Shown here one piece after another: positions 3,834-62,235 of a DNA stretch of 64,000 nt. The notes below the pieces were generated by a model. It did not search any database, had not been told where the DNA came from, and saw only the letters and a program-made list of their open reading frames with translations. Position 1 is the first letter of the stretch; each line of letters opens with the position of its first letter. The stretch is from Geothrix limicola (GTDB lineage: Bacteria; Acidobacteriota; Holophagae; Holophagales; Holophagaceae): contig NZ_BSDE01000001.1 in NCBI RefSeq assembly GCF_030268085.1, positions 806,001-870,000 on the forward strand, read 5' to 3'. A program made the position numbers and the translations under genes.

Positions 3834-6800
3834 TTTGGGCGCCAGGGCCGTGGCCACGGCCACCGGCACGTAAGGCGTGAAGGCCTTGAGGGTGCCGGCC
3901 CAATCCGCCAGCAGGGCCGCCGCGGTGGCGCTGCCGGTTTCTTCGGCATGGGCTTCCAGCAGGCGGCGGAACAGGGCTTCCTCCTCCTGGCGCCAGTGGA
4001 TGGCCGAGAGGTAATCGCCGTTCACGCGGGTGGCGCAATCCCGCCTCAGGAAGAGGCAGCCCCCCGTCATGCCCGCGCCCGCGTTGGTGAGCACCTGGCC
4101 GAGGATGGCCACGGCGCCGCGCGTCATGTATTCGCAGGCATGGTGTCCGGCGCCTTCGACGACGGCGCTGGCGCCGCTGTTGCGCACCGCGAAACGGTCG
4201 CCGGCGAGGCCGCGGGCGAAGAAGCGTCCACCTGTGGCGCCGTAGAGGGCTCCGTTGCCGAGGATGGCGTTCTCTTCGGGTGTGAAGGTGGCGGCGGGGT
4301 TGGGTCGCAGCACCAGGGTTCCGCCGGACATGGACTTGGCCACCGAATCATTGGCCTCGCCCAGCAGCTTCACGTGGAGGCCTTCGGTGAGGAAGGCGCC
4401 GAAACCCTGGCCGGCGCTGCCGGTGAAGGTGAGCCGCAGCTCGCCGGGCACGGCGGCATCGGCGCCTTCGCGGCGCCGTTCGCGGATGCGCTGGGCGATC
4501 TCGCCCGAAAGCGTGGCCAGCACACCCCGGTCCTCCGTATCGATGGGGAAGGCCAGCTCCTGGTGGCCGCCGGCTTCCAGGAAGGGGCGCGCGGCCTCGA
4601 CGATGCGCTGGTTGAGCAGACCCACACCCTCCGGCTGGAAGCTGGCGGATTCGCCGGCGACCGGCTCGGCCGGGGCTTCGAGGAAGGAGGAGAGGTCGAG
4701 CTTCCGGTCCCGCACGAAGGCCGCATGATCCGGCGAAATGGTCAGCAGGTCGGTGCGGTCCATCACCTCGGAGAGCGCGGACACGCCGAGGTCCGCCAGG
4801 TGCCGGCGCACGTCTTCGGCGATGTGGGTCAGCATGCGCTCGATGGCTTCGGGGCTACCCGTGTAGCGCGCCTTGAACTTCGGGTCGTGGGTGGCGATGC
4901 CGGCGGGGCAGGTGTTCTTTTCGCAGATGCGGGCCATGACGCAGCCCTCGGCCACCAGCAGCAGCTTGCCGAACTCGAAACCCTCGGCGCCCAGGATGGC
5001 CGCCGTGACGATGTCCTTGCCCGTCAGCAGGCCGCCGTCCACGCGAAGCTCCACCTGGTCGCGCAGGCGGTTCTCCCGCAGGGTCTGGTGGGCCTCCACG
5101 AGTCCGATCTCCCAGGGCAGGCCCGCGTGCTTCATCGATCCCAGCGTGGCGGCGCCGGTGCCGCCGTCGCCCCCGGCGATGTAGAGGATGTCCGCGCCGG
5201 CCTTGGCGACACCCACGGCGATGGTGCCGATGCCCGTGCCCGAGACGAGCTTCACGCTGATCTTGGCGGTGGGGTGCACCTGCTTCAGCTCGTAGATGAG
5301 TTCTTTCAGATCCTCGATGCTGTAGATGTCGTGCAGGGGCGGCGGCGAGATGAGGTCCACGCCGGGCAGGGAGAAGCGGGCTCTGGCGATGGTGTCGTCC
5401 ACCTTCACCTTCATGAGCTGGCCGCCCTCGCCGGGCTTGGCGCCCTGGGCCACCTTGATCTGGATCTCCTGGCCCGAGACCAGGTATTCGGCCGTGACGC
5501 CGAATCGCGCCGAGGCCACCTGCTTGGTGCTGGCCGTCAGGCCCTCGGTCCAGTAGTAGGGGTTCTCGCCGCCCTCGCCGCTGTTGCTGCGGCCACCCAG
5601 GGCCTCCATGGCGCGGATGAGGTCTCGCTGGCTCTCGGCGCTGACGGCGCCGAAGGACATGGCGCCCGCGCCGAAGCGCTTGAAGATCGCGCTCCTGGGT
5701 TCCACTTCGGTCATGGGACGCGGTGTCTCCGCTTCCCGGAAGGCCAGCAGGTGCCTGGGGTTGATAGGTTCATCCACCTTCAGGGAGGCGAGGTACTCGC
5801 GGTAGACCTCGCGGGCCTCCGGCAGATCCGGATCGAGACCCACGAGGCGGTGCACGATGCGCGAGCGCGCCGAGGTCATGCCGTGGCGCTCGCCTTCGCC
5901 GGGCTTGGTGGATTCCCGGAACTGGTGCGTGTGGAGGAGCTTGTCCTGGAAGCCGGACTGGGCCGCGTAGCCGGTCTTCAGCAGCACGTCGCCCGCCAGT
6001 TCCTCGTAGCCGATGCCGCCCAGGGGGCTCGCGTGGCCGGGGAAGAAGGTCTCCATGAGCTCGGGGCCCAGGCCCACGGCCGTGAAGAGTTTGGCGCTCA
6101 TGTAGCTCTGCACGACGGAGATGCCGCATTTCGCCATGATCTTCAGCAACCCGGATTCCAGGGCCGCCATGAGGTTCTGCTCGCGCTCGTCCGCCGAGAG
6201 CTTGGCGAAGGAGGGATGCTCGTCTCGGCGCGCGATGTCGAGGGCCAGGTAGGGGCAGACCGCCGAGGCGCCGAAACTGATGAGGGCCGCGAGATGGTGC
6301 GAGGTGCGGGCCTCGGCCGTGTGCATGACGATGGAAGCGTTGAGGCGCAGGCCGGATTCGTTGAGGGTATGCACCACGGCGCGTAGCGCGATGAGCCCCG
6401 GGATGGGCGGCTGCTCGACGCTGGCATCCTGGTCGCTGAGGATGATCACGGTGGTGCCGCTCTCCACGGCCTGGCGCACATCCGCCGCCAGCTTGTCGAT
6501 GGCCGCGTGGAAGCCGCTGATGCCGTCCGTGCGCTTGAAGAGGATGGGGAAGGTGCGCGGGATGATCTGGGATTCCGAGGGCCGCATGGACTGCATGCGC
6601 GCCAGGAAGCGCATCTGGCCCAGGTCGAGGATGGGCCGCGGCAGCTCCAACGCCTCGTTGAGCGGCACCAGATCCTTGGGGAAGAAGATGTTCGGCGCCC
6701 GGCCCAGGAACACGCGCAGGTCGGTGATGTTGCCTTCGCGGATGTAGTCCAGGGGCGGGTTCGTGACCTGGGCGAAGTGCTGGTAGAAGTAGTCGAAGAA

Positions 6801-10426: not shown

Positions 10427-13400
10427 CTACTTGGGGCTCCAGGTGTGGCGGATCTCCCCGGATGGGTCGAGGCCGCCGCTGCCCTTGCTGGCGCCGAGCT
10501 GGAGGATGACGTTGCCGAAGCGCCACTCGATCTGGCCGGAGGTGATGCTCAGTTCGCCGCTCTTCTTGTGGGACATGACGAAGGCGCTGCGCTGACCCAG
10601 GAGGTTGACGCTCTTGCCCATGGTGACCTCCGTTTCGGTGCTGCCCAGGGTCGTCGTGCGCACGGCGACGTTCACGCGGTCGAGGCCCAGGGTGCGTCGC
10701 AGCTGCTCCTGGAAGGGGGCGAAGGCGAGGGTCGTGATGAGGCCGGAACCGGCGCTGGCCAGGCCCGAGGTGATGGCGCCCTGCGTGGCCCCCGAGGAGG
10801 CTCCGGCGGTGCCGACGTTGGCCACGTTGCCAGGGTTGATGAGGATGGCGACGATCTCATCCTGGCGCAGGCTGGGGATGGAGGTCGGCACGATGGTCAG
10901 GTTGCTCAGGGTGCCGCGGATGTCGAGGTTCACCGTATAGCCGGGGATGGAGCTCACGCTGCCCTGAAGGTTGATGGCGGGGTCCAGGGGCCTGGATTCG
11001 GAGAAGGCGAGGGAGCCGCGGTCCACCACCATGTCGCCGGCCGGGAAGATGTTGGTGACCCGGCCCCCGGGCTGGAAGATCATCGTGCCCTTGGGCACGG
11101 GATGGCCGAGGGTGCCGAGCACCTGGAAGGGGCCCTCGGTGCGGCCCTCCAGCTTCAGGAGGTTGGTATCGAAGCTCCAGGGCGTGCGGAGGTCCAGGTC
11201 CAGGTCCAGGCGGATCCTTTCGAGGGGATCGTCCAGATCCAACCCGGTCAGGCCCCCGCTGTCGCTGAGGGCGCTGCGCAGGATCAGGTCCGCGAGCTTC
11301 ACTTCGGACTGGTAGCTCAGGCGGTCGGCGCGCAGCTTCCCTTTGAGCACGCCGCTTTCCTCGGTGCCGTTGAGGGTGGCCTGGAGGCTGCCCTGCAGGT
11401 CCAACCCGTCGGGCACATCCCGCAGCTGGAAGTTGGAAAGGGTGGCCTTCAGGGCGTAGGCCTCCAGCCCGCCGAGCCGCCAGGTGGCCGCCCCGCTGGC
11501 TTTCAGATCCCCATGGGCCAGGGTCCCGCGCACGGGGTTCTCTTCGGAAACCGCCAGGGTCCGATCCTTCAGGATGACCGAGGCCTGGATGTCCTCGGCG
11601 CCCTGATACCCGCGCAGGCTCATCTGGCCCTTCTCCAGGGACAGGGTTCCGTCCAGCAGGGGATCGAAGTAGGTGCCGTGCATCAGCAGGTCGAAGCGGC
11701 TGGTGCCGTGGACGCTCAGTTCGGACAGCAGGCTGTAATCGTCCACCTCCATGACCCGGTCCAGGATCGATTTCATGTGGGCGAGGTCCGCCGATCCCTG
11801 GGTCCGAAGCGATAGGGGAACCGAACTCGTGAAGGGCAGGCTGCCGGAGAGGTGCAGTTGCGCGGCCTGGGACGTCTGCTGCGAGGCGGGGCCACGCCCG
11901 CCGCCCTCCAGGCTGAGATCCACCGCCACGCCCTGTGCGGTGCCCCGCAGGTTCGAGGGGCCCACCTGGTGCAGTTCGAAGGCTCCGAATTGCGCGGCCA
12001 GGTCGTCCAGGGAGCCGGTCCAGGCGAGCTCGCCTCCATGCTTCCAGCGGCCCTTGGCCTTGGCGGAAAGGCGAAGATCCTCGAGCAGGTCATCGGACAG
12101 CCCCTGGGCCAGCACGTCGGTGTGTGCGCTTTCGGGGGACACGTTGAGGCTCGCCTCGCCTGCGAGATCCTGGCCCTCCTGGCGGGCCCTGAGTTCGAGC
12201 AGGGGCCGGGTCATGCCTTCGAAACCGAGCTGGCCTTCGAGGCGGCCGCGCTCCAATTGGGCCCGGCCCTCCAGGCCTTCGACACTGCGCTCGCCGAAGA
12301 AGATCCGGCCCCGGCTCAGGGAGACCCGCCCCTCGGGGAGTTCCAGGTCCCCGAAGGCTTTGGTGATGGGACCGAGCAGCCTGGCCTGCACCTGGGATTG
12401 GATATGCGGCCCGGGCAGCGCCAGCAGCTGGGAATCCAGGCGGCCCTCCAGGTCCACCCACCAGGTCCAGTGCTTGAAATCCATGTCGGCCCGTCCGGTG
12501 AGGGCCAGCGACCCCTCAGGCGACCGGTCGCCCTGGCCCAGTCGATCAGGCCCTTCGGCAATTCGCGTGTCCGACAGCCTCATTCGGAGAGTGTCCAGAT
12601 CCATCCAGAAGTCCGAGGAGGCCGCTGGAATTTTGATTCCGTACGTTTCTCCTGATTCGACTTGGGCTGATCCAGTCATGAGGATATGGTCGTAGGGCCC
12701 CCAAAGGCGCACCCACCCGCTTCCGATTCCCGTGATGGGCAGGTCCTTTCCCGATTCGTCCTTCAGGTCCGCCGCCCGGAGTCCTTCGGCGGCGGGGAGT
12801 TTGAAGGCGGTGAAGCACATGTCCATCTGCGGCTGTCCGGGCGCCGTCCGGGCCCAGGTGAGCCAGATGTCGCCTCCGCCCCGGCCGGTCTCCTTCACCA
12901 GGTCGATGTCCTTGATCCAAAGGTCCGAACCGCGGATCTCGACCGTCTTCGCCAAGACACTGTCCGCGTGGGCGCCATGCCAGCGCGGATGGTCCACCTC
13001 AGCGGACCCATCCAATTCGAGACCGGCCTTCCGGCTCCAGCGCACCTTGGCCTGGGCCCGGGTCTGGCCTTCCATGTCCAGATCCACGACCTTCCAGGCA
13101 CGCAGCGCCTCGGCGACCTGATCGGCGCCGACTTCGGCGCTCCCTTCGGCGTCCAATTGGGTGAGACCCCGGGCGTCCAGCGTGGCCCAGCCCGTGCCGT
13201 TCACCTTCAGGGCCTCAAGGTCCAGGTTCAGGCGCTTCAAGGTGGCGCGGCCCCGTTCGAGGGTGGCCTCCAGGCCGCCGGCCTCCAGGCCCCGTTGGGA
13301 GAGGGTCGCCTGGAGCGAGGCCTGCCAGTGGTCCAGGTGCCCGGCGGTTTCGATGGCCTCCGGCCCCTTGACCTGGGCCTGTATGGCGCCCCGGACGCCC

Positions 13401-14539
13401 TTCAATTCCGGCACGCGGAGGGCGCGTCCCACGGCCTCCAGATCGAGGTTCTTGCCTTGGAGCGTGGCCTGCACCGGCGCATGGCGGGACCAGTTGCCCT
13501 GCGCCTCCAGCTCGCCCTGGGAGGAGGCCCAGCGCAGATGATCCAGGTGGACCCGGTCGAGCCCCCCGCTGCCCTTCACATCCAGATTGCCGGGAAGGAA
13601 GACGCCGGCGGCCGGGCGCAGGTCCTGGCCGTCGGCCGCGAAGGTCCATTTGGGCTGGGTCAGCGGGCCCTGGAGCGTGCCCGTGAAGTCCAGGTCGCCG
13701 GTCAGGGGAGGGCGCTGGGTTCCGCTCCAGCGCGAGACCCAGCGTGAGACTTGGGCCAGGTCCAGCACGCCCTTCAGGCGGGCGTCGATTCGGCCTGCGG
13801 ACGGCGGCGTTCCGGTTTCGATCCGGCCGTTGAGGCGGGCCTGGCTTTCACCGAGGCGGAGGTAGGCCTCCTGGATGGAAGCGGAGGGTTCGGAGACCTC
13901 GCCGTTCAGGTCCAGCCGGCCCTTCTCCCAGCCGCCCGGGCCCTTGACCGACAGGTGGGCGCCCGTCAGGTCCACCCGCACATGGTTGGGCCCGAGGCCC
14001 GTCGCCTTCACATCGAACTGGTAGTGCAGGGCCGGAATACCCCGCACGGGCTCGGGCACGTCGATCTCGCCGCCCGTGAGGCTGAAGTAGTCCAGCCGGA
14101 ACTGGGGCAGAGGGCCCTTCCGCGGGGGATGCTCCTTGAGCTTGATGGCAGCGAGCCCGGCTTCGGTCAGGCGCAGGTGGGGATGCTCCAGGCGGATCAA
14201 GTACAGGTGGTGGGTCGGACTGAGCAGGGACCAGAGATCGGCGTGGACCTCGGCCCGCTTGATGGTCAGCAGGTCCCCGCCGAGCTGGATGTCCTGGAGC
14301 ACGAGGGAGCCTCCGGCCGGGCGAAGCTCGATGTGTCCGATGGCCAGAGGCAGCCCCGTCTCATCCCGGACGATCGCGTCCAGCTGGCGCACGGTCCAGC
14401 GGAGCACCGCGGGCCGGGAGGCGATCCAGGGCAGGACGTTGAAGAGGGTGCCGCCGGCGACGAGGGCGTAGGACACCCGGCGGACCCACCTTCGCCCCCA
14501 GAGCCGTTTCACCGCGTCCTTGGTGGGATGCCACACCAT
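10427..14539 (-). CDS. tamB: TamB-like translocation/assembly (AsmA-like) protein
   Basis: A 1370-residue envelope protein. There is a single N-terminal membrane anchor at about residues 18-42 after a basic stretch. A very long chain of repetitive beta-strand segments follows (GxLxxxG patterns, LDGTLSLEKGQMSLRG), as in the AsmA-like/TamB lipid-transfer family. The C-terminal DUF490/TamB domain is recognisable (LINPGNVANVG, FQEQLRRTLGLDRVNV, then TEVTMGKSVNLLGQ and a final strand near RHTWSPK). The family spans the periplasm and works in outer-membrane protein assembly or phospholipid transport. Its start codon overlaps the stop of the upstream kinase gene (ATGA), so the two are translationally coupled. 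No TamA/Omp85 gene is next to it. Confidence 0.88.
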   Translation of the reverse strand: MVWHPTKDAVKRLWGRRWVRRVSYALVAGGTLFNVLPWIASRPAVLRWTVRQLDAIVRDETGLPLAIGHIELRPAGGSLVLQDIQLGGDLLTIKRAEVHADLWSLLSPTHHLYLIRLEHPHLRLTEAGLAAIKLKEHPPRKGPLPQFRLDYFSLTGGEIDVPEPVRGIPALHYQFDVKATGLGPNHVRVDLTGAHLSVKGPGGWEKGRLDLNGEVSEPSASIQEAYLRLGESQARLNGRIETGTPPSAGRIDARLKGVLDLAQVSRWVSRWSGTQRPPLTGDLDFTGTLQGPLTQPKWTFAADGQDLRPAAGVFLPGNLDVKGSGGLDRVHLDHLRWASSQGELEAQGNWSRHAPVQATLQGKNLDLEAVGRALRVPELKGVRGAIQAQVKGPEAIETAGHLDHWQASLQATLSQRGLEAGGLEATLERGRATLKRLNLDLEALKVNGTGWATLDARGLTQLDAEGSAEVGADQVAEALRAWKVVDLDMEGQTRAQAKVRWSRKAGLELDGSAEVDHPRWHGAHADSVLAKTVEIRGSDLWIKDIDLVKETGRGGGDIWLTWARTAPGQPQMDMCFTAFKLPAAEGLRAADLKDESGKDLPITGIGSGWVRLWGPYDHILMTGSAQVESGETYGIKIPAASSDFWMDLDTLRMRLSDTRIAEGPDRLGQGDRSPEGSLALTGRADMDFKHWTWWVDLEGRLDSQLLALPGPHIQSQVQARLLGPITKAFGDLELPEGRVSLSRGRIFFGERSVEGLEGRAQLERGRLEGQLGFEGMTRPLLELRARQEGQDLAGEASLNVSPESAHTDVLAQGLSDDLLEDLRLSAKAKGRWKHGGELAWTGSLDDLAAQFGAFELHQVGPSNLRGTAQGVAVDLSLEGGGRGPASQQTSQAAQLHLSGSLPFTSSVPLSLRTQGSADLAHMKSILDRVMEVDDYSLLSELSVHGTSRFDLLMHGTYFDPLLDGTLSLEKGQMSLRGYQGAEDIQASVILKDRTLAVSEENPVRGTLAHGDLKASGAATWRLGGLEAYALKATLSNFQLRDVPDGLDLQGSLQATLNGTEESGVLKGKLRADRLSYQSEVKLADLILRSALSDSGGLTGLDLDDPLERIRLDLDLDLRTPWSFDTNLLKLEGRTEGPFQVLGTLGHPVPKGTMIFQPGGRVTNIFPAGDMVVDRGSLAFSESRPLDPAINLQGSVSSIPGYTVNLDIRGTLSNLTIVPTSIPSLRQDEIVAILINPGNVANVGTAGASSGATQGAITSGLASAGSGLITTLAFAPFQEQLRRTLGLDRVNVAVRTTTLGSTETEVTMGKSVNLLGQRSAFVMSHKKSGELSITSGQIEWRFGNVILQLGASKGSGGLDPSGEIRHTWSPK

Positions 14540-55421: not shown

Positions 55422-56240
55422 TCAACTGACGCGATTATGAAGTTTTAACTCAACTGCCGCAGCTGGTTCCAGGACGCGGAACGTGAAGGACTCGGTGAAG
55501 TACAGCTCGACCTCGCGTGCATCGTGGATCTTGTAGCCAATGGCGAGATCCTGACCCACCGTCATTTCGAAATCCCCGCCCCGTCGCGAAAGCACGGCAC
55601 CACCTTCAAGCACCGGACTCCAGTGGATGCCACCTGTGACCAGGGACTTGATGCGTTCGCGCAGGGGGTAGGCATTTGGTTCTCCGGCCATCAACCACTG
55701 GTAGGGATCGGTCCCCAGCACCAAGGCGAAGGGGCCACCGATCTCTGCCTTCTGGATGCAGAGCAGGGCCGATTCAACCGATTCGGTGAGACTGCCCCGA
55801 TCGGAACTGAGCACCACCGGAGGATGGCTGGAGCCCGCAAGCATGCCTTGGATGCCGGCAGCGCTGAACCCCCAATAGAGGGCCGTTTCTTCGAAAAGGG
55901 CCACCTTTCGCGCGGCAGCTTTGAGGGCATCCAGATTCGGGTTCTTCGCGCCTCGGGCGATGTCATCCAATTCCCAGATTCCCAGGTTGAAAGGCACCCG
56001 GACCTCCATGAGGGGAAGCACCTTGTGGAGGCCCCAGGCCACATCATCGGCGTCGCTCCCAGGGCCGATATCCAGGCGGCCGAGGCTCACCGCGGCAAAG
56101 GGCAAACCATGAGGGCCCGAAAAATCCACCAGCTTCCGCCCGGAAAGATTGCCCTTCAGAATGCGCGAACTCTGCAGTTCGATTTCCTTCCAAGCCTCAT
56201 CCACGATGGGCGCCACGTGGCGCCGGAGCATGTCAGTCAT
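55422..56240 (-). CDS. enc: Encapsulin shell protein (family 1)
   Basis: A 272-residue HK97-fold shell protein. The N-terminal RRHVAPIVDEAWKEIE, followed by GRKLVDFSGPHGLPFAAVSLG, and the later RVPFNLGIWELDDIARG and RGGDFEMTVGQDLAIGY closely follow the Thermotoga maritima encapsulin chain (linocin M18-like family). It should assemble a T=1 or T=3 icosahedral cage that encloses cargo carrying a C-terminal docking peptide. The EncFtn gene is 22 bases upstream with that peptide. GGGGA is 8 bases before the ATG. A terminator follows. Identification rests on these blocks and the neighbour. Confidence 0.95.
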   Translation of the reverse strand: MTDMLRRHVAPIVDEAWKEIELQSSRILKGNLSGRKLVDFSGPHGLPFAAVSLGRLDIGPGSDADDVAWGLHKVLPLMEVRVPFNLGIWELDDIARGAKNPNLDALKAAARKVALFEETALYWGFSAAGIQGMLAGSSHPPVVLSSDRGSLTESVESALLCIQKAEIGGPFALVLGTDPYQWLMAGEPNAYPLRERIKSLVTGGIHWSPVLEGGAVLSRRGGDFEMTVGQDLAIGYKIHDAREVELYFTESFTFRVLEPAAAVELKLHNRVS

Positions 56241-56262
56241 ATCTGTTTCCCCTGTAGGTGGC

Positions 56263-56601
56263 TCATGTGAGACGCCCCAATCCCAGCCCGTTTCCCGGCG
56301 CTGGGGGAGGCTCCAATCCCTTGGCCAGGGCGGTCAATTCACCGGAGGTGAAGAGGAACTTCCTCAGCTGGACGTCAAACTCGGGCCGGTTTCGTCGCAA
56401 CCATTCAAGGAGCATGGCCGCATGTTCCATCTCGTCATTGCGGTTATGGATCAGGATGGCCTTGAGCGGCTCGTCAGCGGTCGCATCCATCCGTTGGTGG
56501 TAGTAGTCGATGGCTTCCAGTTCTTCCTGCAAACTGGCCAGCGCCCTATGGAAACCGAGCGCCTCAGGCGAAAGGCCCGCTTCCAGGAGTCCGCTGCTCA
56601 T
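56263..56601 (-). CDS. Encapsulated ferritin-like protein (EncFtn) cargo
   Basis: A 112-residue two-helix ferritin-like protein that forms decamers with the di-iron site at the subunit interface. Ferroxidase ligands by comparison with Rhodospirillum EncFtn are about Glu27, Glu57 and His60 (ELEAIDYYHQRMDA, NDEMEHAAMLLEWLRR), with Tyr33 at the Trp position. The last eight residues GLGLGRLT are a typical encapsulin docking tail after a Pro/Gly-rich linker. It oxidises ferrous iron for mineral storage inside the shell. Its ATG overlaps the stop of the SOD gene (ATGA), so the two are coupled. Confidence 0.93.
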   Translation of the reverse strand: MSSGLLEAGLSPEALGFHRALASLQEELEAIDYYHQRMDATADEPLKAILIHNRNDEMEHAAMLLEWLRRNRPEFDVQLRKFLFTSGELTALAKGLEPPPAPGNGLGLGRLT

Positions 56602-57209
56602 CGCTGCCTCTTGGCCTGGTCGTGACGTGTCGCCGCACTGAATCGTCTGGACACCTCACTCCACTTGACGTTGTCGAAGAAGGCATTGATGTAGTCGGGC
56701 CGTTTGATGCCGAAATCCACCATGAAGGCATGCTCCCAGCTGTCCAGCACCAGGAGCAGATCCTGGTCGATGGGCATCCCCAGGTGGTGCTCGGCTACGA
56801 AGTAGGTGTGGAGGCGGCCGTCCCGTCGGTTGCGAGTGAGCAGGGCCCACCCCGGCCCGCCCAGGGCGGTGGCTTTGAGGTCCGCCAGAATCTTGTCCCT
56901 GCCACCCTGCGCGTCCATGGCCTTTTGGAAGTCCGGAGCGGTGGTGGCGTCGGCACCCAGGTTTTCGAAGTAGAGCTCGTGAAGGAAGGAGCCGTTGAAG
57001 GCGACCGCCTCCCGCCGCTTCAATTCGCTGTATTCATTGAAGGAGTAGTTGGGCTTGGTGTTGTTCTCCACCGTCAGCTTCTCCTCAATTTCATTGAGCT
57101 TGGCCAGGTAGCCCTTGTAGAGGGTGAAATGCAGTTCCAGCTGGCTATCGCTGAACCCTTTCAGGGCCCCACCCTTCAGGTGCTCGTAATTCATCGCTTC
57201 GTAGGTCAT
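56598..57209 (-). CDS. sod: Fe/Mn-type superoxide dismutase
   Basis: A 203-residue SOD with the family's metal ligands: His in LELHFTLYKGYLAKLN, His in FLHELYFENL, and Asp plus His in LDSWEHAF. The GxGW equivalent GGPGWALL is present. Some usual residues differ: the second His of the first helix pair is Phe, and the Gln/His gate position aligns to His in VAEHHLG, as seen in some cambialistic and archaeal SODs. It carries no encapsulin docking tail at its C-terminus (SRRFSAATRHDQAKRQR). TGGAGG is 6 bases before the ATG. It is the first gene of SOD-EncFtn-encapsulin. Confidence 0.88.
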   Translation of the reverse strand: MTYEAMNYEHLKGGALKGFSDSQLELHFTLYKGYLAKLNEIEEKLTVENNTKPNYSFNEYSELKRREAVAFNGSFLHELYFENLGADATTAPDFQKAMDAQGGRDKILADLKATALGGPGWALLTRNRRDGRLHTYFVAEHHLGMPIDQDLLLVLDSWEHAFMVDFGIKRPDYINAFFDNVKWSEVSRRFSAATRHDQAKRQR

Positions 57210-57612
57210 GAAACGCCTCCAGGATGCCGGTCGATTGAAGCAAAAGAATTCCTACGCCTGAAGGTCTGGAGCAATTTCCAATCCAATGCGAAAGTGCGTC
57301 TAAGTAAAGTGTTTATGCGCTTGCAAGGGATTCTTCCGAGAGGGCTTTCCACCAAAATGATGCCCCTGCTGCTTCAGTTTGAAGGCCCCATCAAAGTCGC
57401 TCTCGACTGTCCATTTGGGGGGAGAAGACCATGCCATTCCTGCCATGGGTGTTCCCCGGCAAGACTCCTTCGAAGTGACTTGATCGGCGTCTCAAATTGA
57501 TCGAAGGCCCGAACCTCGTCGTTTGCTCAAACGTGTATAAATGTAAACAAATAAGATATTAGTTAACGGGCTCAAGAAATGCAGAGTGATCTGAATCTTG
57601 AGGTCGACCAGC
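57210..57612. promoter_or_regulatory. Divergent control region between SOD operon and type III PKS unit
   Basis: A 403-base gene-free stretch. The central and right part is AT-rich for this genome (57535-57566, including GTATAAATGTAAAC). Both operons must be driven from here. On the minus strand TTGCAA lies at 57325-57320 with TTAGAC 17 bases on, a weak promoter-like pair for SOD. I see no convincing Fur, PerR or OxyR operator. Confidence 0.4.
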
Positions 57613-58773
57613 ATGGCGCGTGTCCCGATCCATCTACATGATTTCCAGATCCAGCCCGCGAGGTACCACTCGGATCAGGCGACCATCGTGGATTGGATCG
57701 CCGCGGCCCACGCCCAGGCGGAGATCACCCTTCAGGCACCACCGACGGATGAGGCCCGTGAAACCCTCGTCCGGAAATTCCGGAAGTTGGTTCGGCGGTT
57801 TGGCTGCAGCACGGATCGGATCGCCTTCCGGAATTCCTCACTGGAGGACTTCACCCATACGGATTGGGATCGGATGAGGATCTTCCAGCTGAACAAGTTT
57901 CCCTCGGGAAGGCCTTGCGGGGAGCGGAGCCGGTTTTTCAGTGAGATCAGCGGCGAAGCGTTCGAACAGTTCTACGCCCATGAGAGCGAGCCGCCTCCGG
58001 TCATCATCCATGTCACGTGCACGGGGTACGTGTCCCCCAGCGGCGCCCAACGGCTGGTGGCCAGCCGGGACTGGGGCCGGTCCACGGAAGTGTTTCACGC
58101 GTATCACATGGGTTGCTATGCCTCGATGCCAGCCATTCGCATGGCAGCGGGCTTTGTGGAAAGGGGTAAGGCCCGTGTGGACATCGTCCACACCGAGTTG
58201 TGCACCTTGCACATGGATCCCAGCCAGCACCTGCCCGAGCAACTGGTGGTGCAGACCCTGTTCGCGGATGGTTTGATTCGGTATTCGGTGTCTCGTGCCA
58301 GGGCCGGGAAACCCCTTTCGAATGGCCTGGAGCTGATCACCACCCGTGAGGAAATCGTGCCTGGCACCGGCGATGCCATGACCTGGATGGTCTCGGATTT
58401 CGGGATGCTGATGACGCTCTCCCGGAAGGTGCCCGATCACATTCGCGCAGGTTTGGGGGCGTTCCTCGACAGGTTGGCCGCTTCAGCGGAGCTGACGTCG
58501 GGTCAGCTGATCGAAGAGGCGATCTTCGCCATACATCCCGGCGGCCCGCGAATCATCGATGAGATCGCGGAACACCTTGGCCTGCGGCCCGAACAGGTGA
58601 GCGCCAGCAACGCCATTCTCAGCCAGTTCGGCAACATGTCATCCGCCACGTTGCCCCATGTGTGGCAGGCCGTGCTGGCGGATCCAGCCGTGAAACCCGG
58701 CACCCTCATCGTCTCCCTGGCCTTTGGGCCCGGACTGACCATCGCGGGTGCCATCCTCCGGAAAACGCCGTGA
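57613..58773 (+). CDS. Type III polyketide synthase (chalcone synthase-like)
   Basis: A 386-residue condensing enzyme. The catalytic triad is visible: Cys in YHMGCYASMPA, His in FAIHPGGPRI and Asn in FGNMSSATLPHVW. Bacterial type III PKSs extend an acyl-CoA with malonyl-CoA to resorcinols, pyrones or quinone precursors. The coupled methyltransferase suggests a methylated phenolic lipid. ATG 57613 is chosen, with GAGG about 10 bases upstream; a TTG at 57598 is an alternative. Its TGA overlaps the GTG of the next gene. Confidence 0.92.
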   Translation: MARVPIHLHDFQIQPARYHSDQATIVDWIAAAHAQAEITLQAPPTDEARETLVRKFRKLVRRFGCSTDRIAFRNSSLEDFTHTDWDRMRIFQLNKFPSGRPCGERSRFFSEISGEAFEQFYAHESEPPPVIIHVTCTGYVSPSGAQRLVASRDWGRSTEVFHAYHMGCYASMPAIRMAAGFVERGKARVDIVHTELCTLHMDPSQHLPEQLVVQTLFADGLIRYSVSRARAGKPLSNGLELITTREEIVPGTGDAMTWMVSDFGMLMTLSRKVPDHIRAGLGAFLDRLAASAELTSGQLIEEAIFAIHPGGPRIIDEIAEHLGLRPEQVSASNAILSQFGNMSSATLPHVWQAVLADPAVKPGTLIVSLAFGPGLTIAGAILRKTP

Positions 58774-60020
58774 ACGGTACCTTGTTCTGGCTCCTGCCCT
58801 TCGGATTCCAGGGCCTGGCCATGGGGTTTGACACGTTCATCTACCACCGCCGCCGGGAGGTGCCCCGCTGGGAAGGGCTGGGACACGTGCTGGACAGCCT
58901 GGTCTTCCTGGCTTGCTTGGTGCTCCCGGTGCTGGTCGCTCCCACACCTTCGAACATCCGGCTCTTCAGTGGCATGGCCGTGTGCTCATGTCTTCTGATC
59001 ACGAAGGACGAATTCATCCACCAGCGCCTCTGCTCGGGAGGGGAGCATTGGCTTCATGCCGTGTTGTTCATCCTCCATCCCATCGTGCTGTTAGCCACAG
59101 CCATGCTTTGGATCGACCTTGGATCCGCCGCCCTTTCTCAGACCTTCCCTCGACCCCTGGCCGCATGGCTGCTCCAGTTGCAGGCGGCCCTCGTCTTCGG
59201 ATTTCTGGTGTACCAGATTGCCGAGTGGTTCTGGCGGGCTCGGTGGGAAGGGAAGGGTCCGGAGATCAACAACAGCATTTACGAGGATCTGGGCGACCGT
59301 TGGTACACGACCACCGACGACCCTGTGGCGCTGCTTAGGGCCGAGTCGCGACTCCGGACTTCCTGGGTGCAGGCGGACCTTCACGCAGCCTTTGGCGAAG
59401 AAGCCTTGGCCATTCTCGATGTGGCCTGTGGAGCTGGATTTCTGAGCAACCCGCTGGCACAGGCCGGGCATGAGGTCACCGGCATCGACCTCTCGCTTAG
59501 CAGCCTCGAGGTGGCGAAACGGCACGATCACACCCGATCCGTGACGTACCTCCCCATGGATGCCCGGTGCTTGTCCTTTCCCGACGCGCGGTTCGATGTG
59601 GTCTGCATGATGGATTTCCTCGAACATCTTCCGGAAAAGGAAGAGGTGCTGCGAGAGGCCTCCAGGGTCCTCAAGCCGGGTGGGTGGTTCTTCTTCCACA
59701 CCTTCAATCGGACGCTCCTCAGTTGGCTCATCGGCATCAAGGGCGTCGAGTGGTTTGTGAAGAACACACCCGCGCACATGCATGTGTACCGGCTTTTCCT
59801 AAAGCCTTCCGAATTGAGGGATCTCTGCGCCCGCCAACACCTGGTCGTGGAAGAGGTTCGGGGGGTTCGTCCGCGGATCTTCAGCTGGGCTTTCTGGAAG
59901 CTGCTTCTCACCGGAAGGGTGAGCGATCAGTTCCAGTTCGTGTTCACGCATTCACAAAGCATCGGGTATTGCGGGCACGCCCGAAAATTGACCGCCTTAC
60001 TTGCCAGGCCTGTGCCATGA
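58770..60020 (+). CDS. Fusion of His-rich membrane domain and UbiG-like methyltransferase
   Basis: A 416-residue protein. Residues 1-155 contain four to five transmembrane helices with clustered acids and histidines (DEFIH at 80-84, E92-H93, H96, H103; also D21, H26, H39), which looks like a metal-binding membrane enzyme. Residues from about 185 form a SAM methyltransferase of the UbiG type: ILDVACGAGFLSNPL is motif I, GIDLSLSSL motif II, MDFLEHLP the acidic motif, and FFHTFNRTLLSWLIGIKG the UbiG-specific block. It probably O-methylates the phenolic product of the PKS. GTG start overlapping the PKS stop gives strict coupling. The membrane domain is not recognised. Confidence 0.82.
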   Translation: MNGTLFWLLPFGFQGLAMGFDTFIYHRRREVPRWEGLGHVLDSLVFLACLVLPVLVAPTPSNIRLFSGMAVCSCLLITKDEFIHQRLCSGGEHWLHAVLFILHPIVLLATAMLWIDLGSAALSQTFPRPLAAWLLQLQAALVFGFLVYQIAEWFWRARWEGKGPEINNSIYEDLGDRWYTTTDDPVALLRAESRLRTSWVQADLHAAFGEEALAILDVACGAGFLSNPLAQAGHEVTGIDLSLSSLEVAKRHDHTRSVTYLPMDARCLSFPDARFDVVCMMDFLEHLPEKEEVLREASRVLKPGGWFFFHTFNRTLLSWLIGIKGVEWFVKNTPAHMHVYRLFLKPSELRDLCARQHLVVEEVRGVRPRIFSWAFWKLLLTGRVSDQFQFVFTHSQSIGYCGHARKLTALLARPVP

Positions 60021-61008: not shown

Positions 61009-61611
61009 ATGACCAAGATCCTGATTCTCTACTACAGCATGTATGGCCACATCGAAAGCCTGGCCAAGGCGGTGGCGGAGGGCGCCCGGGGAGTCGCAAA
61101 CACCGAGGTCACCCTCAAGCGCGTGCCCGAATTGATGTCTGAAGAGGCGGCCCGCAAAGCCGGCGCCAAGGTCGATCAGGCCGCTCCCCTTGCGAATGTC
61201 GATGAACTCTCGGGGTACGACGCCATCATCTTCGGCACCCCGACGCGGTTCGGGAACATGTGCGCCCAGATGCGGAACTTCCTCGATCAGACGGGCCGGC
61301 TGTGGCAGGAGGGCGGCCTGATCGGCAAGGTGGGCAGCGTGTTTACCAGCACTGCCACGCAGCACGGCGGGCAGGAAACCACCATCACGTCCTTCCATAC
61401 CACCCTGCTGCATCACGGCATGGTCATCGTGGGCGTCCCCTATTCCTGCGTACAGATCGGAAACATGGGTGAAATCAGCGGTGGGTCGCCCTACGGCGCC
61501 GGTACGCTGGCGGGTGGCGATGGCCACCGCCAACCCTCAGAGAACGAGTTGACGATCGCGCGATTCCAGGGCGCGCATGTGGCGGACGTGGCCAGGAAGC
61601 TTTCAGCCTGA
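61009..61611 (+). CDS. wrbA: NAD(P)H:quinone oxidoreductase WrbA
   Basis: A 200-residue flavodoxin-fold enzyme that reduces quinones by two electrons and limits superoxide formation. The FMN phosphate loop is [13 protein letters not shown], and [35 protein letters not shown] and [13 protein letters not shown] are WrbA signatures. The cofactor acts as a tetramer. It is 78 bases downstream of the hydrolase. A role next to SOD and phenolic-lipid genes fits quinone and oxygen stress. Confidence 0.95.
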
Positions 61612-62055
61612 TCAGCCGGCAGGCACGTTGGAGCGGGGCGAATGGCCGCGAAGGCGAAATCCTTCGACCTTCCCTTGCATGCCTGAATGCGTCTCATCGA
61701 TTTCCCACGTGGACGACTGCGCGTGGACGCCTTGATCAAGTCGTTCAACTTGGCGAGGTTCTCTGTCGCGAGCGGGTCGCATTCAGATCAAGGCGAGCGC
61801 GTTGCCCGGCAAGGCTGGGAGCGGAAGGTGTGTGGCGGGAAGGATGGTGGCGATCGCGGATGCCGATCGTTCAGCGAGGATGCGGCCGTGAAGGCGGGGG
61901 CTCATTCAGAATGATGGATCCATCTCGCTCGCGCCCTGATCGCAATTGTAAAGACATGAATACTAAGGAGCATTGATTGTGGCTTGAAACCTGCTCAGTT
62001 CTGTTGGCCACCATCCGGTGCGCACAACCGCAGTTTCACACGAGGAGTCAGAACC
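61612..62055. other. Gene-free spacer between wrbA and csbD
   Basis: This 444-base stretch has no convincing gene. A 75-codon frame at 61687-61914 lacks a ribosome site and known motifs. Near 61649-61666 is a short hairpin CGAAGG/CCTTCG that may end wrbA transcription weakly. The right end is AT-rich (61940-61985) and should hold the promoter of the csbD unit, but I cannot set a firm -35/-10 pair. Confidence 0.45.
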
Positions 62056-62235
62056 ATGAAATCAAGCACGAAGGATCAGGTCGCAGGTACGTTTCATGAA
62101 CTCAAAGGCAAGGTCGAGGAGACCGCGGGCAAGGTGACGAAAAATCCTCGGTTGAAGGACAAGGGTCGCGCTGAAAAAGTCAGCGGCAAAGTTCAGAAGA
62201 AGATCGGCCAGGTGGAGAAGGTGCTTGGCAAGTAA
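62056..62235 (+). CDS. CsbD-family stress protein
   Basis: A 59-residue highly charged, Lys/Glu-rich helical protein. KDQVAGTFHELKGKVEETAGKV, then GRAEKVSGKVQKKIGQVEKVLGK, is the CsbD-like pattern. The family is induced by general or envelope stress; function is unknown. ATG 62056 has GAGGAG 8 bases upstream; the longer frame from 61984 is not used. A strong terminator follows. Confidence 0.9.
   Translation: MKSSTKDQVAGTFHELKGKVEETAGKVTKNPRLKDKGRAEKVSGKVQKKIGQVEKVLGK

What the first reader, a model, noticed from the sequence alone, without database searches (positions are those of the whole stretch)
55422..57209. Superoxide dismutase coupled to an encapsulated ferritin and encapsulin shell
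The operon order is SOD, EncFtn, encapsulin, with the SOD stop and EncFtn start overlapping by ATGA. EncFtn has a clear docking tail (GLGLGRLT); SOD has none. EncFtn-encapsulin pairs are known iron stores, but I know of no standard description with SOD as the coupled first gene. SOD would make H2O2 outside or at the shell while EncFtn consumes ferrous iron inside, so superoxide removal and iron sequestration would be co-expressed. That function is inference; the gene order and tail are seen directly.
Basis: partly seen in the sequence, partly recalled or inferred. Interest (0 to 1): 0.8.

Follow-up and report, generated by a model that had tools for sequence, protein, structure and literature searches.

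The report
Superoxide dismutase joined to iron nanocompartment
In one family of soil and sediment bacteria, the two genes for a protein shell that stores iron are read together with a superoxide-destroying enzyme, from a switchable promoter shared with other stress genes, so iron storage and superoxide removal are probably turned on as one response.

Summary
On the minus strand: Fe/Mn superoxide dismutase (SOD, 57209-56598), encapsulated ferritin (EncFtn, 56601-56263; ATGA overlap) and family 1 encapsulin (56240-55422). EncFtn carries the encapsulin targeting tail; SOD does not.

SOD sits directly before EncFtn in 12 of 17 EncFtn-bearing genomes of the class, all Holophagaceae. Geothrix fuzhouensis keeps an internally deleted SOD, four genomes lack it, and none of 66 EncFtn-like loci outside the family has one. 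The operon SOD is a purifying-selected paralogue of a standalone SOD; its short tail is non-conserved and carries the EncFtn ribosome-binding site.

The main new result is regulatory. Upstream of SOD lie paired TCR-N3-TGA sites 22 bp apart and, about 96 bp from their start, a sigma54 (GG-N10-GC) promoter. A model trained without these promoters scores 10 of 12 operons at 49-64 (shuffled maximum -4). The same element precedes a BON-Dps gene cluster, a type III polyketide synthase, and a MopR/DmpR-type sigma54 activator gene found in 16 of 17 EncFtn genomes versus 10 of 76 others.

Best reading: EncFtn is encapsulated; SOD stays cytosolic; all three belong to one sigma54-controlled iron/superoxide response. 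New variant of a known kind.

The parts
56598..57209 (-). Fe/Mn superoxide dismutase (Aquifex-like); metal ligands H27, H77, D156, H160 by alignment; 203 aa including a non-conserved C-terminal extension of about 13 aa absent from standalone relatives
56263..56601 (-). Encapsulated ferritin EncFtn; ferroxidase-centre residues E27, E57, H60 (=E32, E62, H65 of R. rubrum) and entry-site E26, E29 present; C-terminal targeting peptide GLGLGRLT
55422..56240 (-). Family 1 encapsulin shell protein
   Evidence: only encapsulin in the genome
56598..56601 (-). ATGA overlap of SOD stop and EncFtn start
   Evidence: conserved as ATGA in 8 of 12 relatives, longer overlap in 2, gap of 8 nt or less in 2
57270..57286 (-). 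Predicted sigma54 (RpoN) -24/-12 promoter TTGGATTGGAAATTGCT
   Evidence: conserved GG-N10-GC across relatives; rpoN in genome
57352..57382 (-). Predicted upstream activator site pair, TCAAACTGA and TCATTTTGG, 22 bp apart, start 96 bp before the sigma54 site
57470..57500 (+). Second activator site pair facing the divergent type III polyketide synthase gene
   Evidence: score 32.1 against shuffled maximum 0.4
57567..57583 (+). Sigma54-like site CGGGCTCAAGAAATGCA for the divergent gene, 97 bp after the start of its site pair
57598..58773 (+). Divergent type III polyketide synthase (chalcone/stilbene synthase family), predicted to share the regulator; the following 58662-60020 ORF is a SAM methyltransferase
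   Evidence: same divergent arrangement in G244

Best explanation
A three-gene, translationally coupled operon makes (1) a cytosolic Fe/Mn SOD, (2) EncFtn, which docks inside the shell by its C-terminal peptide and oxidises Fe2+, and (3) a family 1 encapsulin shell that stores the resulting ferric iron. A sigma54 promoter upstream of SOD drives all three, activated by an enhancer-binding protein of the XylR/MopR type (gene at G000:C3:393124 onward, next to BON-domain and Dps genes). When its signal is present, the cell at once removes superoxide, which would otherwise release Fe2+ from iron-sulfur clusters and feed Fenton chemistry, and sequesters Fe2+ in EncFtn-encapsulin and Dps. SOD was probably added once, in Holophagaceae, to an existing EncFtn-encapsulin cassette that already carried this promoter, and can be lost again. 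Shown here (by sequence): gene identities, order, conservation, targeting peptide, promoter elements and their recurrence. Inferred: co-transcription, activator identity, signal, SOD location, physiological role.
For: Families and residues. SOD directly upstream in 12 of 17 genomes, deletion remnant in G. fuzhouensis, none in G347, G300, G433, G432. Operon SODs group together (11 of 12 at 97/84 support) apart from the standalone copies of their own genomes, median dN/dS 0.12, like encapsulin. No targeting peptide in any of 12 SOD tails, present in EncFtn tails. Composite promoter: conserved upstream block beats shuffles; model trained without operon promoters gives 48.9-63.6 for 10 of 12 operons and 60.6 for the deleted one, against a shuffled maximum of -4.3, while all standalone SODs stay in the range of the null. 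The same promoter sits directly before EncFtn in SOD-less G433 (score 21.1) and before an extra first gene in G424. Site pattern: 8 hits in own genome, 0 in reversed control; 17 genomes, 1 control hit in all. Site pair within about 50 bp of the activator gene start in G000, G403, G244, G190, G276, G300, G424, G427, G411, G407. Activator in 16 of 17 EncFtn genomes against 10 of 76 others. In G244 the activator gene lies about 5 kb from the operon. Sensor domain homologous to MopR and PoxR.
Against: No expression data. The link between the site pair and this activator rests on adjacency and co-occurrence; related genomes are not independent, so the Fisher P values overstate. SOD is missing or broken in 5 of 17 genomes. 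Two SOD operons (G435, and G424 in its immediate upstream) lack the composite promoter next to SOD. Pairwise distances of SOD, EncFtn and encapsulin did not correlate, nor did EncFtn with encapsulin, so that test was uninformative.
Confidence: 0.72

Rival explanations
1. SOD is a second cargo or is held at the shell, so superoxide is dismutated inside or on the compartment and the H2O2 is handed to EncFtn.
For: Operon SODs all carry a C-terminal extension that standalone relatives lack.
Against: The extension has no common motif, scores like shuffled sequence against the targeting consensus, and holds the EncFtn ribosome-binding site, so it is better explained by moving the SOD stop codon to the EncFtn start. 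The N-terminus is unchanged in length against standalone SODs.
Confidence: 0.07
2. SOD is a chance neighbour that inherited the promoter by position; co-expression has no joint function and the cell's other SODs do the work.
For: Lost or deleted in 5 of 17 genomes; SOD-bearing genomes also have a close standalone SOD.
Against: Kept with the coupled junction across four genera and under purifying selection similar to the standalone SOD (dN/dS 0.12 against 0.13); ligands invariant.
Confidence: 0.18
3. The promoter elements belong to another sigma54 activator, and the MopR-type gene near Dps is only one more target.
For: Enhancer-binding proteins can share similar half-sites; the genome could encode several activators (not surveyed).
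Against: Site pair adjacent to the activator start in 10 genomes, and co-occurrence of activator with the cassette.
Confidence: 0.2

Closest known systems
EncFtn-encapsulin iron storage operon (family 1, e.g. Rhodospirillum rubrum Rru_A0973, Haliangium ochraceum)
   Same: EncFtn then encapsulin, ferroxidase residues, C-terminal targeting peptide, family 1 shell
   Different: A coupled SOD gene in front, and a sigma54/activator promoter; neither is reported in the papers searched
Mycobacterial DyP-encapsulin, linked to oxidative stress defence (eLife 10:e74358)
   Same: Family 1 shell in an oxidative-stress role
   Different: Peroxidase cargo inside the shell; here an SOD outside and a ferritin inside
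Aquifex pyrophilus Fe-SOD (1coj)
   Same: Closest solved SOD by sequence and fold
   Different: Standalone enzyme; no known link to encapsulins
MopR/DmpR/PoxR phenol-sensing sigma54 activators
   Same: XylR_N + V4R sensor, sigma54 AAA+ domain, Fis HTH; aligned zinc-site Cys/Glu and His106 kept
   Different: MopR Trp134 not kept in the alignment; predicted targets are stress and iron genes, not phenol degradation

Membership tests
EncFtn (encapsulated ferritin) | EncFtn-like family match | tested here: met
   PF22277 9.3e-35, above cut-off; TIGR04535 116.6 bits, below its 125-bit cut-off
EncFtn (encapsulated ferritin) | Ferroxidase-centre residues E32, E62, H65 | tested here: met
   E27, E57, H60 by alignment range to 5da5
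EncFtn (encapsulated ferritin) | C-terminal targeting peptide | tested here: met
   GLGLGRLT; conserved G-L-G-[LIV]-G-x-L in most relatives
EncFtn (encapsulated ferritin) | Ferroxidase activity and shell loading | not testable with these tools
   needs protein
Family 1 encapsulin | Linocin_M18/encap_f1 match over the whole protein | tested here: met
   257.7 and 266.2 bits, above cut-offs
Fe/Mn superoxide dismutase | Both SOD domains and four metal ligands | tested here: met
   Sod_Fe_C above cut-off, Sod_Fe_N 23.5 bits just under its cut-off of 27; H27, H77, D156, H160 invariant in 15 sequences; fold match 1coj TM 0.84
Encapsulin cargo (claim for SOD) | Targeting peptide | tested here: not met
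   none in 12 operon SODs
Sigma54-dependent promoter | GG-N10-GC element with upstream activator site | tested here: met
Sigma54-dependent promoter | RpoN-dependent transcription | not testable with these tools
   rpoN gene present; needs a mutant
XylR/MopR-type enhancer-binding protein | XylR_N, V4R, Sigma54_activat, HTH_8 domains | tested here: met

The most novel reading that the evidence does not exclude
A MopR-like sensor of a phenolic or quinone-type compound switches on, through sigma54, a combined programme of SOD, encapsulated ferritin, Dps and a type III polyketide synthase: an iron nanocompartment controlled by redox-active aromatic compounds and not by iron or peroxide itself.
Probability: 0.25. 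Interest if true: 0.7.

Novelty: new variant of a known kind. Interest (0 to 1): 0.52.

Why it matters
How encapsulins are switched on is largely unknown. This gives a concrete promoter, a candidate activator and a gene set (Dps, SOD, EncFtn shell) to test in cultivable Geothrix strains, plus a natural comparison: G. rubra with an intact SOD and G. fuzhouensis with the SOD deleted inside the same operon. It also suggests that iron storage in a nanocompartment is wired to superoxide defence in this lineage.

Tried and rejected
A shift of the second SOD metal ligand (NG in place of NH) was suspected and rejected: alignment to 1coj puts H77 at the ligand position. A structured RNA or riboswitch in the leader: no Rfam match and no unusual folding energy (z 0.15). 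A targeting peptide in the SOD tail: rejected. Distance correlation among operon genes: uninformative. EncFtn on plasmids: 4 weak matches, not pursued. SOD coupling outside Holophagaceae: none in 66 EncFtn-like loci, of which only 13 have an encapsulin close by. Papers: no hit joining encapsulin with Geothrix or sigma54; none describing an SOD-encapsulin operon. Subscription papers and preprints were not searchable.

Full report
What is there. Three genes lie head to tail on the minus strand: Fe/Mn SOD (57209-56598), EncFtn (56601-56263) and family 1 encapsulin (56240-55422). Family models and solved structures agree. By the alignment range to R. rubrum EncFtn, the ferroxidase residues are E27, E57 and H60 and the entry-site residues E26 and E29. 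The SOD ligands H27, H77, D156 and H160 are invariant in 15 relatives, and a predicted model (pLDDT 87.7) matches Aquifex Fe-SOD 1coj best (TM 0.84).

Conservation. Of 93 genomes in the class, 17 have a close EncFtn relative, all in one family. Twelve have the SOD directly before EncFtn, with ATGA in eight, a longer overlap in two and a gap of 2-8 nt in two. G190 has two inverted copies of SOD-EncFtn without an encapsulin nearby. G166 (Geothrix fuzhouensis SG12) keeps only the two ends of the SOD, joined in frame. G347, G300, G433 and G432 have none. Outside the family, 66 EncFtn-like loci from Acidobacteriota and from the phylum of G443 (an Ilumatobacteraceae genome) gave no SOD within the fetched flanks.

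Origin of the SOD. The same genomes carry a standalone SOD about 75% identical to the operon copy. In a maximum-likelihood tree the operon copies group together (11 of 12 at 97/84), near standalone SODs of another genus. This fits one capture of a paralogue. The gene is under purifying selection (median dN/dS 0.12; standalone 0.13; encapsulin 0.12; EncFtn 0.18). Operon SODs end in roughly 8-16 extra residues with no shared sequence, whose DNA contains the Shine-Dalgarno-like sequence of EncFtn. The simplest reading is that the SOD stop moved downstream to couple translation. These tails score like shuffled sequence against the published targeting consensus, while the EncFtn tails score 18-29.

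Promoter. The region before SOD holds a conserved block (18.1 bits per sequence against 13.0-14.2 in shuffles). Alignment shows two TCR-N3-TGA sites exactly 22 bp apart and then a GG-N10-GC element typical of sigma54. Across 42 composite instances collected from many genes the start of the site pair lies 93-98 bp before the sigma54 site, mostly 95-97. A model trained on 31 instances that exclude all operon promoters scores 48.9-63.6 for ten of twelve operons and 60.6 for the deletion operon, against a maximum of -4.3 for shuffled 450-base windows; standalone SODs stay in the range of that null. In SOD-less G433 the element stands directly before EncFtn (21.1), and SOD-less G432 has a sigma54 site there with a degenerate site pair. 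In G424 it precedes one more gene before SOD, and G347 has a one-mismatch site pair in the matching place. So the promoter goes with the EncFtn-encapsulin cassette and the SOD was placed under it.

Regulon and regulator. The exact site pattern occurs at about seven places in the window's genome and never in the reversed control: before the operon, before the divergent polyketide synthase (57470-57500), before a kelch-repeat lipoprotein gene, between a sigma54 activator gene and a BON-Dps gene cluster, twice between a small lipoprotein gene and an AI-2E permease gene, and upstream of a DUF748 gene. Seventeen genomes show 2-21 hits each with a single control hit in all. The activator has XylR_N, V4R, Sigma54_activat and HTH_8 domains; its sensor is homologous to MopR and PoxR, with the zinc-site Cys/Glu pattern and His106 kept and Trp134 not kept (residue roles from memory). 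A site pair lies within about 50 bp of its start in ten genomes. Orthologues occur in 16 of 17 EncFtn genomes and 10 of 76 others (P 2e-10; within the genus 10 of 10 against 7 of 37, P 4e-6), with the caveat that related genomes are not independent. In G244 the activator lies about 5 kb from the operon, and the divergent polyketide synthase and methyltransferase genes are there as in the window. The genome has rpoN.

Interpretation. The most economical mechanism is a sigma54-driven response in which SOD lowers superoxide, and so the release of Fe2+ from iron-sulfur clusters, while EncFtn in its shell and Dps take up Fe2+. That step follows from general knowledge of superoxide and iron chemistry and is not shown here. 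The signal is unknown; a phenolic or quinone-type ligand is a guess from the sensor family and the polyketide synthase in the regulon.

Novelty. The parts are known; the SOD-EncFtn-encapsulin operon and its sigma54 control were not found in the searched open literature. I rate it a new variant of a known kind.

Noticed in passing
L084 4921-5026 and 5178-5283; L149 937-1586: The 3' end of the standalone SOD gene is repeated downstream: 106 nt at 257-nt spacing (94% identical) in the window's genome, three copies at about 261-nt spacing in G087; similar fragments appear in many relatives. Cause unknown.
   Followed up: partly
L006-L010, L012, L015, L017-L020, L050-L064: Many EncFtn-like genes in Acidobacteriota and Acidimicrobiia have no family 1 encapsulin within the fetched flanks; genomes G443 and G444 have none at all.
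   Followed up: partly
L086 (G190:C40) 5318-6258 and 12469-13409: Two inverted, near-identical copies of SOD-EncFtn without encapsulin nearby; may be a real palindromic duplication or an assembly fault.
   Followed up: no
L085 around 4454-5056: The third SOD of the genome has a twin-arginine-like N-terminal signal (RRKALELL), suggesting an exported SOD.
   Followed up: no
61009-62235: A WrbA-like flavodoxin-fold gene (61009-61611) and a CsbD stress-protein gene (61984-62235) follow; a weak composite promoter-like match at 61884 is not above chance.
   Followed up: partly
L095 and L091 (G424, G347): A small predicted secreted protein gene is inserted as an extra first gene of the cassette in genus g8.
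   Followed up: partly
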